64,000 nucleotides of DNA, from contig NZ_JACVPI010000001.1 of the NCBI RefSeq assembly GCF_018881965.1, positions 1,680,018 through 1,744,017 on the forward strand, in the 5' to 3' direction. Shown in pieces: positions 1 to 5,076 of the stretch. The stretch is from Polynucleobacter sp. JS-Polo-80-F4. Lineage in GTDB: Bacteria > Pseudomonadota > Gammaproteobacteria > Burkholderiales > Burkholderiaceae. Made by a program: the position numbers and the translations under genes. The notes under the pieces are model-generated. The model was not told the origin of the DNA and did not search any database. It worked only from the letters and a program-made list of their open reading frames with translations. Position 1 is the first letter of the stretch; every line of letters begins with the position of its first letter.

Positions 1-614
1 CGCTCAGCATTTTGGTTGTATTGCAAAGAAAAAGTTGGATCGCTGTAAAGATCTATGGCGCCAAAGCAATGCAAGGTTTCATGTGCAATGGTTGAGGCAG
101 TCTCGTAAGACCCTTCAAAAGTTTTGTAAACCAAAAATCCCTCAATATCTTTCGAGGAGGGTTCCGCATAGGATCGGCCAGATTTATTGGCATAGACGGC
201 GACCAGTATCGAATCAAAGGCCACGTGATCTTGAGCCCATTTCTTAAACTGCCTATTGGATTTAAATCCGGATAGCTTGACGGCATCATTAACAATATTG
301 CTGCTGTAGTTACCGTACCCTGGAATTTTTGCGACGATGACATCTCGACTGTTGATATTGCTTTCTTCAATGAAGGTAAGGGGCTTCCCAAGCTTTGCAG
401 CGCGCTGAATAAGCCATTTATGGGCAAGCTCAGACTTTTTGAGCATGGACTTCTTCTCATTCATCTTCCAGGGGTTGCCAGGCTCCGCAATGAAAATGTT
501 ATAGACGAAAACGGTGCCAGTGAGGGTTCGGGCTGTCCCATAATCCCTCAATTGGGCATAGCAGCTACCTGCCCAAAGGCAAAGAAGCGCCGTCAAAAGA
601 GAATACTTTTTCAT
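1..614 (-). CDS. putative secreted zinc metalloprotease, 3' end outside window
   Basis: Open from an ATG at 614 to the window edge, giving 204 complete codons with no stop. Residues 1-20 form a signal peptide (Lys-Lys start, Leu-rich core, CYA|Q cleavage), so the product is probably exported. Residues 178-188 read HETLHCFGAID, an HExxHxxGxxD motif: three zinc ligands (H178, H182, D188) plus the catalytic Glu179, as in snapalysin-type metzincins and related families. The start follows the stop of the DUF350 gene by one base, so the two are probably co-transcribed. The family cannot be named further and the C-terminus is missing. The motif is directly visible; protease activity is inferred. Confidence 0.7.
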   Translation of the reverse strand, partial: MKKYSLLTALLCLWAGSCYAQLRDYGTARTLTGTVFVYNIFIAEPGNPWKMNEKKSMLKKSELAHKWLIQRAAKLGKPLTFIEESNINSRDVIVAKIPGYGNYSSNIVNDAVKLSGFKSNRQFKKWAQDHVAFDSILVAVYANKSGRSYAEPSSKDIEGFLVYKTFEGSYETASTIAHETLHCFGAIDLYSDPTFSLQYNQNAE

Positions 615-615
615 G

Positions 616-1137
616 CTAATGAATTGTTAGGGGAACTATTGTGCTGGTAACCATTTCAATGCCGGGTGCAAGAAAGGTTGCGGTAGAGATAATGACTGCA
701 GTAAATACCAGCGCTACTGCAATATTGCCATTCTCAATTTCGGCAATCTCATCTAGCTCTGCTGTAATTCTGGAATAAATTTCCAGTGAAATGATTAGAC
801 TCAAAATAGAGAGTACAAAAGAAACCAAAAACTGCAACCCAATTAAACCCATGGAAATGAGCACGTCAGCAAACTGTGGATCATCCGCATGAATAAAGGC
901 TTGTAAATAAGTGATGCCCGATGACATGGAATTTTTCATCATGATCGTCATCGCCAAGATATATCCAACAAAGCAAATGGCGTTTGAAATGCTCCTGTTC
1001 TTAAGGCCATTGTTTAGATGAAATCTTTTGGAGCTAATGTTAGACATTACCCAACAGGTCATCATCAGTGCGGCTATGGAGACAATGAGGGATACGATGA
1101 GATAGACAGCTCCAGATGCTAATGCAAGGTAATCCAT
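616..1137 (-). CDS. DUF350 (YjfL-like) inner-membrane protein
   Basis: A 173-residue protein with four hydrophobic segments and the ENGNIAVA signature near the C-terminus typical of DUF350/YjfL membrane proteins, whose biochemical role is unknown. An in-frame ATG six codons upstream (1155) exists, but GGAG sits seven bases before the ATG at 1137, so that start is preferred. It is the first gene of a two-gene unit with the secreted metalloprotease and diverges from the STAND NTPase gene across about 150 bp. In other genomes I recall DUF350 genes beside PspA-like and polyamine-synthase-like genes, which suggests an envelope-stress role; that is inference. Confidence 0.75.
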   Translation of the reverse strand: MDYLALASGAVYLIVSLIVSIAALMMTCWVMSNISSKRFHLNNGLKNRSISNAICFVGYILAMTIMMKNSMSSGITYLQAFIHADDPQFADVLISMGLIGLQFLVSFVLSILSLIISLEIYSRITAELDEIAEIENGNIAVALVFTAVIISTATFLAPGIEMVTSTIVPLTIH

Positions 1138-1288
1138 TGTTAAATCTCCATTCATAATTTGCGTGCCATCCAGTTTGGATGGGCTTAATAGTGAGCAGTG
1201 TATCCAAATCGTAAAGTTCCTGGAAGTAGAAAATCTTTATAAATTACCTATAGAATTCAGAAACAGTATTAAATACTAGGGTTTCCCC

Positions 1289-4200
1289 ATGCAAAACCGC
1301 TCTATCCGCATCTTCTTATCTTCGACCTTTAGGGATTACGGGGAAGAGCGTGATTTATTGGTACGTAAAGTCTTTCCTAATTTGCGGGCTAAGCTTAAAG
1401 ATCGCTTTGTCGAGTTGGTTGACGTTGATCTTCGCTGGGGCATTACAGTGCAGCAGGCAGAACGGGGTGAAGTGTTACCCATTTGTCTGGCGGAGATCGA
1501 CAGGGCCAGACCTTTCTTTGTAGGGATGTTAGGTGATCGCTATGGCTGGATCCCTCCCAAAGATGCGTATGCTCCTGACTTGGTCGAGCGCCAACCTTGG
1601 TTAGATAGTCACCGTGGTGGCAAAAGTGTTACCGAACTCGAGATGCTCCATGGAGTTCTTAATAATCCCAAGATGGCTGGCAGGGCGCTGTTTTACTTCA
1701 GATCATCAAGCTATGCCAAGCAAAAGGGTGGGGTTTATTTACCTGAGTCGCCAGCAGATCACGAGCGCCAACAAAAGCTCAAAGCACGCATTAGTAAACA
1801 CCGCTTCCCGGTAGTGCGCTATCAGAACCCAGAGGCCTTTGCCAAGCGCCTTGAAAAAGACCTCTGGAAACTATTGGATAAAGAGTTCCCTGCCAGCAGT
1901 GTTCCTGATGCCTATACCAGGGAAGGACTCAAGCATGAGTCATATGCTGCCCCCAGAAGAAGACTCTATCTTGGTGGCGAAAAATACCTCGCTGCACTTG
2001 GTAAAGCAGTTCAAAACAAAGAGAGCAAGATCCTCATTGTTGGCTCTTCAGGTGGCGGTAAGAGCGCGTTAATAGCCAACTGGCTGCAAAGCTACCGAGC
2101 TAAACACCCCAAACACCTGGTCTTTGAGTACTACTTAGGGGCTAGCACTGACTCAGCCGACCCAGCGGTATTAGTAAGACGCCTTATTGAGACCATTAAG
2201 CGCATTACTGGCAGTAATGAAGAAGTTGCAGGTGATCCCCAAAAACTGTATGACAGCTTGCCTGCTTGGCTGGCAGCAGCGAGCGCCTATGCTGGCAAGC
2301 GCAAGACGAGTTGGGTGATCGCACTGGACTCTTTAAATAGTCTGACGCAATTGCAGGATCTACGTTGGCTACCGCAACATCTACCGCCTCACATTACCTT
2401 GATGATCTCTACTCTTCCCGGGGAGGTGAATGCGGCATTGCTGACCAAGGTGGATAAAAAACAGCGTTGGCACACCATCCAAGTAAAGCCTCTAACAAGC
2501 GCCGAGCGTAAGAACCTTTTAGTTACTTACCTTGCTAAGTACAACAAAACCTTAGCCCCAGACTTGCTCAAACAAGCCTTAGCGCACCCCTTATCCAATA
2601 ACCCACTGTTCATCCGAACCTTGGCTGAAGAGCTACGCTTGTTTGGAGTCCATGAAGAGTTGCAAAAGCGCTTAAAGCACTACCTCACCAGTAAAACCAT
2701 TGATGATCTGTTCGAGCGGGTGCTCAAACGCGTTGAAGGTGATAGCGGCAAACAAGCAGTGCAACTTGCCATGCAATCGATCTGGGCTGCGCGAGCAGGT
2801 CTGACTGAAAAAGAAATCTTAGCCATCGTAGGACTCAAACCAGCAACCTGGGCTCCGATCCGCAATGCCCTAGATGAATGTCTTTTAGAGTCCAATGGCA
2901 AGATCACCTTTGCACATGACTACATGCGTATAGCAGTCAAAGACAGATTCCTCAAAACCAAGCAGCTCCAAAAACAAGCCCACATTGATTTAGCGAAGTA
3001 CTTCCAAAAACAAATAGCAGACGCAAGAAGAGCAGAAGAAGAGCCCTACCAATGGCAGCGTGCAGAGGAGTGGGATAGTTTGAGGAAGTGTTTAGTTGAT
3101 AAGGGCGTGTTCGATTACTTACTAAGGCGTAAAGATCGAAGTGAAATCTTGGCTTACTGGTTAGATGTCCAAAAGCAACTTGATTGCCGTATAGATGGTG
3201 AGATCAAAAAATTATTACGCAAATGGAAGCTGATCAAAGGTAGCGTAGATGATGCGAGGTTAATATATGGAGTGGCCGACTTTTTAAGGTATTCAAGTTT
3301 GCATGGAGTGGCCCTTCAATTTGGTGAGTTGGCACTCCAATTAATTCAGGAAACCCTGGGTGCCAAGCATCCGGAATACTTTAAGGCAGGTATATTAATT
3401 GGCGATCTCTTAATTGCAGAATCTCAGTACGACAAAGCACGGAAGTTCATTGAAAAACTTTTAAAGCAGGCTGAGAAAATATTTGGCAAAACAAGTCTGC
3501 AAGTAGCTGAGTTAACCAATTGCCTTAGCACTATGTATTACGGTGCAAGTGATTACATTAAAGCAAGTGCATTGACTAAGGCAACCATTGAAATGCGCAG
3601 CAAGCTATTGGGAAATTCTCATCCCGATACTGTAACGGCTAGAAATAATCTGGCCAACATACAAGAGGCTATGAGTGAGTTTGAGAGTGCCATAGCATTA
3701 CATCAAGACTGTTTGGCGCGCTACCGTCAGATTTATGGTGCTCAGAGTTCTTGGTATGCATTAAGTTTGAATAATCTTGCTAGCGCTCTCGAGAAAGCAG
3801 GAAAACTTGATGAAGCGGTTCAGTATTTTAGGCAGTCCATTCAAATTTATGAGGATTTGCTAGGTCCATATTCTTCAGACATCTTGTTGCCTATTTCAAA
3901 TCTTGGCTTATTACTGCCAAAGCTTGGCATGGAGAAGGAGGGTGTCGAGCTATGTCGCAGGGCATTGCAGATTTGCGAACGAGTTTTTGGTGAGAATAAC
4001 GCAGAGACCGCGCGGCTACTCATCAATATTGCCTCACTTCTATATGATCCAGTTGAGAGAAAGCCGCTGATTTTACGCGCCTACCGTATATGTCAAGATA
4101 TGCTGGGTGAGCATCGTATTACAGCAGTTTGCCTCTCCTTTTTAGCGTCAATCTATGATCAAGAGGATGATCTTGACCTAGCGGAAAAATATTACTTAGA

Positions 4201-4927
4201 GTCTCTTGAGATGGCGCAGCGGATCTACGGAGACGAGGGATATATTACCGCTGACTGTATGTTTAACGTCGGAAACTTCTACTCCAATAACTTTACGGAT
4301 GTCACTGATACTGCCCTGAAATACTACAGGCGCGCTCTGGAAATTAAGCAAATTAGGGTGGGGGTCGATAGCCCTCATTTATGCCCCGTTATGTTTGCTA
4401 TTGCCGATGCAGAAGAAAATTTAGAGCAATTCGAGCAAGCCAAAAAAATCTATCAGGAAATTTATAGAATCATTGAAAAGAACTTTGGTTTGGAGAGTAT
4501 TCAGATCATTAATTGTCTAGCGCGTTTGGCTGACATTGATGAGAGAGATAAACAATATCAATCTGCCGAGGAGCTTTATTTAAGGGCTTATCGCTTATCT
4601 TCTTCGCACTATGGTGAGTCTGCTGATCTTACGGGAATTTTGAGTGAGCGACTTGGCAGGCTTTATCTAACTACACGCAGATTTGATCAATCTGAGAAAT
4701 ATCTCAACGAAGCCCTGAAAATTACCCAGAAATGCCATGGTAAGCATTCGGCTGAAAATATCAGCCCCCTGAAAAACCTGGCCAATCTCTTGATCATTCA
4801 AGGGAATGGCGTGGCGGCCCGACCGCTCCTGGATCAAGCCTTATTGCTAGCAAAAGCCAATGATTCGGACGATTTGCCTAAGCTTGAGAAGCTTGTTGAA
4901 AAATTAAACGCCTTAAACGGAAAATAG
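1289..4927 (+). CDS. DUF4062-NACHT-like STAND NTPase with TPR array
   Basis: A 1212-residue protein of three parts. Residues 6-90 are a DUF4062 domain, a TIR-like fold family: FLSSTFRDYGEERDLL, DLRWGIT at 47-53 and FVGMLGDRYGWIPP at 77-90. A STAND/NACHT-like ATPase follows, with Walker A GSSGGGKS at 252-259 and Walker B WVIALDS ending near D347-S348. From about residue 670 to 1190 there are about ten repeats of roughly 42 residues of the kinesin-light-chain/TPR_12 type. The same order is found in eukaryotic nephrocystin-3. STAND proteins with a sensor repeat array and an N-terminal effector act in antiviral immunity in bacteria (Avs, bNACHT); such a role here is inference. A weak AGGG precedes the ATG. 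It stands alone between a divergent operon and tRNA-Val. Confidence 0.85.
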   Translation: MQNRSIRIFLSSTFRDYGEERDLLVRKVFPNLRAKLKDRFVELVDVDLRWGITVQQAERGEVLPICLAEIDRARPFFVGMLGDRYGWIPPKDAYAPDLVERQPWLDSHRGGKSVTELEMLHGVLNNPKMAGRALFYFRSSSYAKQKGGVYLPESPADHERQQKLKARISKHRFPVVRYQNPEAFAKRLEKDLWKLLDKEFPASSVPDAYTREGLKHESYAAPRRRLYLGGEKYLAALGKAVQNKESKILIVGSSGGGKSALIANWLQSYRAKHPKHLVFEYYLGASTDSADPAVLVRRLIETIKRITGSNEEVAGDPQKLYDSLPAWLAAASAYAGKRKTSWVIALDSLNSLTQLQDLRWLPQHLPPHITLMISTLPGEVNAALLTKVDKKQRWHTIQVKPLTSAERKNLLVTYLAKYNKTLAPDLLKQALAHPLSNNPLFIRTLAEELRLFGVHEELQKRLKHYLTSKTIDDLFERVLKRVEGDSGKQAVQLAMQSIWAARAGLTEKEILAIVGLKPATWAPIRNALDECLLESNGKITFAHDYMRIAVKDRFLKTKQLQKQAHIDLAKYFQKQIADARRAEEEPYQWQRAEEWDSLRKCLVDKGVFDYLLRRKDRSEILAYWLDVQKQLDCRIDGEIKKLLRKWKLIKGSVDDARLIYGVADFLRYSSLHGVALQFGELALQLIQETLGAKHPEYFKAGILIGDLLIAESQYDKARKFIEKLLKQAEKIFGKTSLQVAELTNCLSTMYYGASDYIKASALTKATIEMRSKLLGNSHPDTVTARNNLANIQEAMSEFESAIALHQDCLARYRQIYGAQSSWYALSLNNLASALEKAGKLDEAVQYFRQSIQIYEDLLGPYSSDILLPISNLGLLLPKLGMEKEGVELCRRALQICERVFGENNAETARLLINIASLLYDPVERKPLILRAYRICQDMLGEHRITAVCLSFLASIYDQEDDLDLAEKYYLESLEMAQRIYGDEGYITADCMFNVGNFYSNNFTDVTDTALKYYRRALEIKQIRVGVDSPHLCPVMFAIADAEENLEQFEQAKKIYQEIYRIIEKNFGLESIQIINCLARLADIDERDKQYQSAEELYLRAYRLSSSHYGESADLTGILSERLGRLYLTTRRFDQSEKYLNEALKITQKCHGKHSAENISPLKNLANLLIIQGNGVAARPLLDQALLLAKANDSDDLPKLEKLVEKLNALNGK

Positions 4928-4999: not shown

Positions 5000-5076
5000 A
5001 GGCTCGTAGCTCAGCTGGTTAGAGCACCACCTTGACATGGTGGGGGTCGTTGGTTCGAGTCCAATCGAGCCTACCA
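5000..5076 (+). tRNA. tRNA-Val(GAC)
   Basis: A 77-nt cloverleaf ending in encoded CCA. The acceptor stem AGGCTCG pairs fully with CGAGCCT, the D arm is GCTC/GAGC, the anticodon stem CCACC/GGTGG encloses loop TTGACAT with anticodon GAC, and the T loop is GTTCGAGTC. It lies 72 bp after the STAND gene and 131 bp before thrS. Confidence 0.95.

What the first reader, a model, noticed from the sequence alone, without database searches (positions are those of the whole stretch)
1..1288. Secreted HExxHxxGxxD protease plus DUF350 divergent from the STAND gene
The window edge cuts a gene encoding a signal peptide and HETLHCFGAID. It is coupled to a DUF350 membrane protein and shares a short divergent promoter region with the STAND NTPase. 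A protease, a membrane protein and a sensor ATPase side by side could be one envelope-linked defence or stress unit.
Basis: partly seen in the sequence, partly recalled or inferred. Interest (0 to 1): 0.5.

Follow-up and report, generated by a model that had tools for sequence, protein, structure and literature searches.

The report
Paired envelope protease and DUF350 gene
Two adjoining bacterial genes, one for an exported zinc protease and one for a small membrane protein of unknown function, recur side by side in distant bacteria and probably work together, while the immune-like gene next door looks like an unrelated neighbour.

Summary
The features are real. An exported HExxHxxGxxD protease (cut by the window edge; 250 aa in the genome) lies 1 bp downstream of a DUF350 membrane protein, divergent from a DUF4062-NACHT-TPR STAND gene. 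The three-gene unit is not supported: 0 of 19 STAND-homologue loci carry either partner, 0 of 17 of their genomes has DUF350, and a sister island in another Polynucleobacter lacks the eight genes, these two included, that lie here between the FtsH-like gene and the STAND gene. The protease belongs to a rare family without a curated Pfam or NCBIfam match. In all 11 bacterial genomes with a strong match (seven neighbourhoods) a DUF350 gene is adjacent on the same strand, gap -4 to +11 bp. In one gammaproteobacterial family 8 of 8 protease genomes have a short DUF350 against 1 of 62 others, and that one pairs its DUF350 with a transglutaminase-like peptidase. A phage homologue and two remote relatives lack DUF350 nearby. 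Best reading: an envelope proteolysis dyad, DUF350 being the membrane partner. Substrate, mechanism and any defence role are untested.

The parts
1..614 (-). exported metzincin-like zinc protease, cut by the window edge (204 of 250 codons in the window; the rest at L003:9880-10018)
   Evidence: HExxHxFGAxDLY and D[IL]M in 12 of 12 aligned members; no Pfam match over its cut-off
616..1155 (-). DUF350 membrane protein, 179 aa, four hydrophobic segments; start perhaps at 1137 (173 aa)
   Evidence: PF03994 53.8 bits against 26; hydropathy; 1-bp gap to the protease start
1156..1288 (.). 133-bp spacer between the dyad and the STAND gene (1138-1288 if DUF350 starts at 1137); no conserved promoter found
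1289..4927 (+). neighbour, not part of the dyad: DUF4062-NACHT-TPR (NPHP3-like) STAND protein, 1212 aa
   Evidence: homologues without dyad

Best explanation
Window 1-1155 holds a two-gene envelope proteolysis dyad. One gene encodes an exported zinc endopeptidase of an uncurated, metzincin-like family (HExxHxFGAxDLY ... D[IL]M). The other encodes a DUF350 inner-membrane hairpin protein that acts as its dedicated membrane partner: anchor, regulator or substrate gate. In the gammaproteobacterial relatives the peptidase mostly has its own N-terminal hydrophobic anchor and about 120 extra residues, and pairs with a single-hairpin DUF350 of 75-77 aa. In the window the peptidase has only a signal-like N-terminus and its DUF350 has two hairpins, which would fit DUF350 doing the tethering. 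Shown here: adjacency, co-occurrence, invariant motif residues, hydrophobic segments. Inferred: periplasmic location, zinc dependence, physical interaction, role in envelope protein turnover or processing. The STAND gene is an independent member of a conflict-type island.
For: Strong protease matches in 11 bacterial genomes (own genome, G665, G1101, G1180, G1469, G1419, G1421, G1430, G1429, G1428, G1434) each have DUF350 adjacent on the same strand, gap -4 to +11 bp. Three of the short DUF350s and the window's pass the Pfam cut-off (37.8, 38.9, 39.9 and 53.8 bits against 26); the others match a model built from five of the set. Flanking genes sort these into seven neighbourhoods. Gene order is reversed in the window, so the pairing is not just one inherited stretch. 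In one family the short DUF350 occurs in 8 of 8 protease genomes and 1 of 62 others (Fisher p 1e-9, not corrected for kinship). The exception pairs DUF350, overlapping by 4 bp, with another class of peptidase, CEP76/transglutaminase-like, 41.4 bits against 27.8. H, E, H, G, D of the motif are invariant in 12 members. Nine of 10 gammaproteobacterial members have an N-terminal hydrophobic segment.
Against: A phage homologue (L118) has no DUF350 in its 10.6-kb locus, and the remote relatives L108 and L109 (small loci) have none, so the peptidase fold can act without it. The window's DUF350 is divergent: the short-DUF350 model scores it only 18.0 bits, no better than ordinary DUF350s. None of 58 Burkholderiales DUF350 loci has a protease of this family beside it, so most DUF350s do other things. 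The G1101 protease misses the hydropathy threshold. Both structure predictions failed (mean pLDDT 37), so fold and interaction are unsupported by structure. Five of the 11 genomes share one genus, so independence is limited. Activity is untested.
Confidence: 0.6

Rival explanations
1. One three-part envelope defence or stress unit: the STAND ATPase senses a trigger and acts through the DUF350-protease pair.
For: Adjacency and divergence in this genome; the STAND gene sits in an island of conflict-type genes; DUF4062 is a reported antiphage NADase domain (PMC13174449, part 1 of 6 and passages read).
Against: 0 of 19 STAND loci have either gene; 0 of 17 genomes have DUF350; the sister island L022 lacks the dyad beside an 86%-identical STAND; no STAND N-part homologue in 10 other dyad loci; upstream regions not conserved.
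Confidence: 0.05
2. Co-transcribed but functionally independent cargo: the two genes travel together as an operon or mobile cassette without their products interacting.
For: Patchy distribution (1 of 151 genus, 1 of 299 family, 2 of 398 phylum, 3 of 197 order genomes) and varied neighbourhoods suit a mobile pair; here it lies in an island next to tRNA-Val.
Against: Pairing is kept in both gene orders, co-occurrence is tight in one family, and a short DUF350 also pairs with a peptidase of another class.
Confidence: 0.2
3. DUF350 is the effector (for example a membrane channel or PSP-linked envelope-stress protein) and the protease controls it, or the protease processes a secreted substrate and DUF350 serves membrane stress.
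For: YjfL/DUF350 proteins occur in PspA-linked operons (PMC11237479, passages read).
Against: No PspA-linked partner was recognised by eye in the listed neighbours, though this was not searched with profiles.
Confidence: 0.13

Closest known systems
DUF350 / YjfL (PF03994) in PSP-linked and polyamine operons (PMC11237479)
   Same: Window protein and short partners match PF03994 over its cut-off.
   Different: The passages read name PspA-CesT/Tir, spermidine synthase, K+ channel and ATP-grasp partners for DUF350. The one metallopeptidase passage concerns PspAA/PspAB systems, not DUF350. Here the partner is a peptidase and the DUF350 is often a half-length single hairpin.
Snapalysin (M7) and reprolysin-like (M12B) metzincins
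   Same: HExxHxxGxxD/H-type motif and a downstream Met; weak matches to PF02031 and PF13688.
   Different: No match reaches a Pfam cut-off in 12 members, and no solved structure matches with significance.
Swarozyc and NPHP3/TEP1-type DUF4062 proteins (PMC13174449), for the neighbouring STAND gene
   Same: DUF4062 over cut-off, NACHT-like and NPHP3-type TPR; a conserved SVTELE[MI]LHG stretch in 18 of 20 loci scanned.
   Different: NADase activity and antiphage effect untested; it is not part of the dyad.
Transglutaminase-like peptidase paired with DUF350 in G1417
   Same: Short DUF350 next to an N-terminally anchored peptidase, 4-bp overlap.
   Different: Cysteine-peptidase-like fold (PF24656) instead of a zinc protease; a single case.

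Membership tests
DUF350 (PF03994) | score over Pfam gathering cut-off | tested here: met
   P0002 53.8 bits against 26; short partners 37.8-39.9 bits
Peptidase M7 (PF02031, snapalysin) | score over Pfam gathering cut-off | tested here: not met
   13.9 bits against 25 for P0001; 1 of 12 members matches at E 0.1 or better
Reprolysin-like M12B (PF13688) | score over Pfam gathering cut-off | tested here: not met
   5 of 12 members at E 0.1 or better, best E 0.0062; best 17.2 bits against 27
Metzincin-like zinc peptidases (broad) | HExxHxxGxx[HD] plus a downstream Met-turn | tested here: met
   12 of 12 members; the motif's meaning is recalled
Metzincin-like zinc peptidases (broad) | metzincin fold | tested here: inconclusive
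   AlphaFold2 mean pLDDT 36.6 and 36.9
Protease-DUF350 dyad | adjacent, same strand, within a few bp | tested here: met
   11 of 11 bacterial genomes with a strong protease match
PSP-linked DUF350 operon | PspA, CesT/Tir or polyamine genes beside DUF350 | tested here: inconclusive
   none recognised by eye in the listed neighbours; no profile search for them was run
DUF4062 NADase / Swarozyc (STAND neighbour) | DUF4062 domain | tested here: met
   PF13271 42.1 bits against 24.7
DUF4062 NADase / Swarozyc (STAND neighbour) | catalytic Glu, NADase activity and phage defence | not testable with these tools
   a conserved E is present in SVTELE[MI]LHG but was not aligned to the published catalytic residue

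The most novel reading that the evidence does not exclude
DUF350 hairpins are modular membrane adaptors for periplasmic peptidases of more than one catalytic class (this metzincin-like family and, in G1417, a transglutaminase-like peptidase), giving the uncharacterised DUF350/YjfL family a first concrete function: recruiting or gating proteolysis at the inner membrane.
Probability: 0.25. Interest if true: 0.65.

Novelty: new variant of a known kind. Interest (0 to 1): 0.45.

Why it matters
DUF350/YjfL is widespread (79 of 300 Burkholderiales genomes sampled), and the papers seen here gave it no molecular function. A tight, repeated pairing with a peptidase, and once with a second class of peptidase, turns it into a testable hypothesis: DUF350 as a membrane partner of envelope proteolysis. 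It also shows that the STAND gene's divergent neighbours are a passenger module, which matters when guilt by association is used to call defence systems.

Tried and rejected
STAND-DUF350-protease unit: rejected on 19 STAND loci and the sister island. Caveats: L027 is probably the G009 contig already found; L028 and L029 carry the same STAND and the same flank in two MAGs; many contigs are short. Protease in plasmids and phages: P0001 no match; G665 protease no match in plasmids; phage homologue no match in either. DUF350 in plasmids: no match; in viral contigs: none confirmed. Close genome contigs relatives of P0001: none.

Ordinary Burkholderiales DUF350s as protease partners: none in 58 loci (30 with about 1.5 kb and 28 with about 5 kb on either side). 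One (L047) has an M43-looking protease (motif recalled) about 250 bp downstream; it was not seen in the ORFs printed for L043 and L045, so it is probably incidental. Of the four further regions fetched, only L130, the L047 locus again, shows an HExxH-type motif; they were examined no further.

Structure: single-sequence and two-sequence AlphaFold2 both failed; no fold search was run. PDB by sequence: nothing significant. Insertion or deletion in the island: undecided; GC of the eight genes (0.40-0.456) resembles the window (0.455), and no shared boundary word of 9 bp or more was found. Weak hits: L107 dropped as unrelated (no HExxHxFGAxDLY seen); L108 and L109 kept as remote relatives outside the count of 11.

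Full report
What is there. The window begins inside a gene that the genome completes as a 250-aa protease (L003:9880-10632(-)). It has a signal-like N-terminus (by eye), HETLHCFGAIDLY and, outside the window, a DIM turn. One base pair upstream ends a 179-aa DUF350 protein (window 616-1155(-); 53.8 bits against a cut-off of 26), with four hydrophobic segments. A start at 1137 is preferred because of a GGAG upstream (by eye). Divergently, 1289-4927(+) encodes a DUF4062-NACHT-TPR protein of NPHP3 type, followed by tRNA-Val (window 5000-5076). The genome is Polynucleobacter by inference: its genus-mate G009 has a contig of the same length and the same gene match as L027, titled Polynucleobacter.

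Test of the three-gene reading. A scan of genome contigs with the STAND N-terminal part gave 19 loci. By phmmer on ORFs and six-frame profiles 0 of 19 carries the protease or the DUF350, and PF03994 rings in 0 of 17 of their genomes (completeness not told, many are MAGs). The clearest case is L022, Polynucleobacter sp. AP-Capit-er-40B-B4. Its island lies beside the same tRNA-Val and its FtsH-like gene (78.8% identical protein) is next to a STAND 86.1% identical to ours, with 543 bp between start codons. In the window genome 4.8 kb and eight ORFs lie there: 166, 148, 97, 129, 142 (Adhesin_E), 302 (Sel1), protease, DUF350. Blastn homology of the STAND stretch begins 4 bp before its ATG, and the upstream stretches of four Polynucleobacter copies look unrelated, so no shared promoter is conserved. 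Which island is ancestral is undecided.

The dyad. The protease is rare: by single-sequence search 1 of 151 genomes in the genus, 1 of 299 in the family and 2 of 398 in the phylum, the window's genome being one in each. The second phylum hit, G665, led to 3 of 197 genomes in its order and 8 of 77 in the family of G1180; the class sample gave G665 plus three weak hits (4 of 185). In all 11 bacterial genomes with a strong match DUF350 is adjacent on the same strand. Gaps are 1 bp in the window genome and, in the ten others, 1, 11, 0, 11, 11, -4, 2, 2, -4 and -4 bp. In the ten others the order is protease then DUF350; in the window it is reversed. Shared flanking genes reduce the 11 to seven neighbourhoods: G1180/G1469, G1421/G1430/G1428, G1429/G1434, and four single ones.

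The reciprocal test. A short-DUF350 profile over 70 genomes, all of which are in the earlier list of 77, matched 9: the 8 protease genomes and G1417. Fisher's exact p is 1e-9, not corrected for kinship. In G1417 the DUF350 (36.8 bits against 26) overlaps by 4 bp a 279-aa protein with a hydrophobic N-terminus (by eye) and a CEP76/transglutaminase-like peptidase domain (41.4 bits against 27.8). That is one case, but it is a second peptidase class beside the same kind of hairpin.

Proteins. The 12 aligned proteases (11 bacterial, one from viral contig L118) all have HExxHxFGAxDLY and D[IL]M; H, E, H, G and D of the motif are invariant. No member reaches the cut-off of a Pfam family, and the members tested with NCBIfam show none. 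Nine of ten gammaproteobacterial members have an N-terminal hydrophobic segment; G1101, the window protein and the phage protein miss the threshold. TPR-like similarity of the extra N-terminal region is weak (best E 0.014). The window pair (no anchor; double hairpin) and the gammaproteobacterial pairs (anchor; single hairpin) may be two ways of keeping the peptidase at the membrane; this is inference.

Against. L118 has no DUF350 in 10.6 kb, and L108 and L109 have none. None of 58 Burkholderiales DUF350 loci carries this protease. The window's DUF350 scores only 18.0 bits with the short-DUF350 model, like ordinary DUF350s. Structure prediction failed twice. Function is untested.

Literature. 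DUF350 occurs in 35 papers of the held library (20 listed), with 'protease' in 21 (15 listed); searches for YjfL (15 papers), UPF0719 (1), DUF350 with transglutaminase (1) and DUF350 with metalloprotease and Shewanella (0) showed no title describing this pairing. Most were seen as listings only. Of PMC11237479 I read passages, of PMC13174449 part 1 of 6 and passages, of PMC4602095 one passage. So 'not described' holds only for these searches.

Verdict. Observation confirmed; the unit is two genes, not three. It is most likely a membrane-linked peptidase dyad, a new variant built from a known domain family and an uncurated protease family.

Noticed in passing
L003:2526-6512 and L004:8513-16775 (left of the window, same island): Conflict-type genes: FtsH-like AAA-M41 protein with a possible zinc ribbon, a DUF4231-like membrane protein just under its cut-off and a paralogue of it; by eye a caspase-like domain between membrane segments and a papain-like secreted protein.
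   Followed up: partly
L118:4992-6657: A viral contig encodes a homologue of the protease without DUF350. It is followed by a small lipoprotein-like gene and then two adjoining genes that look like a spanin pair (70-aa membrane coiled coil, weak PHROG Rz-like spanin match E 0.013; 102-aa lipoprotein by eye).
   Followed up: partly
   Followed up: partly
L028 and L029: Two MAGs labelled Sphingomonadales and Oxalobacteraceae carry the same STAND gene and the same left flank, suggesting misbinning or very recent transfer.
   Followed up: no
G000:C5:261966-267130: Further DUF4062/TPR-containing STAND-like genes elsewhere in the same genome.
   Followed up: no
window 1289-4927: The STAND protein has the DUF4062-NACHT-TPR layout of human NPHP3; DUF4062 was reported in a 2026 preprint as a TIR-like NADase active in antiphage defence (PMC13174449), so this gene is itself a defence candidate.
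   Followed up: partly
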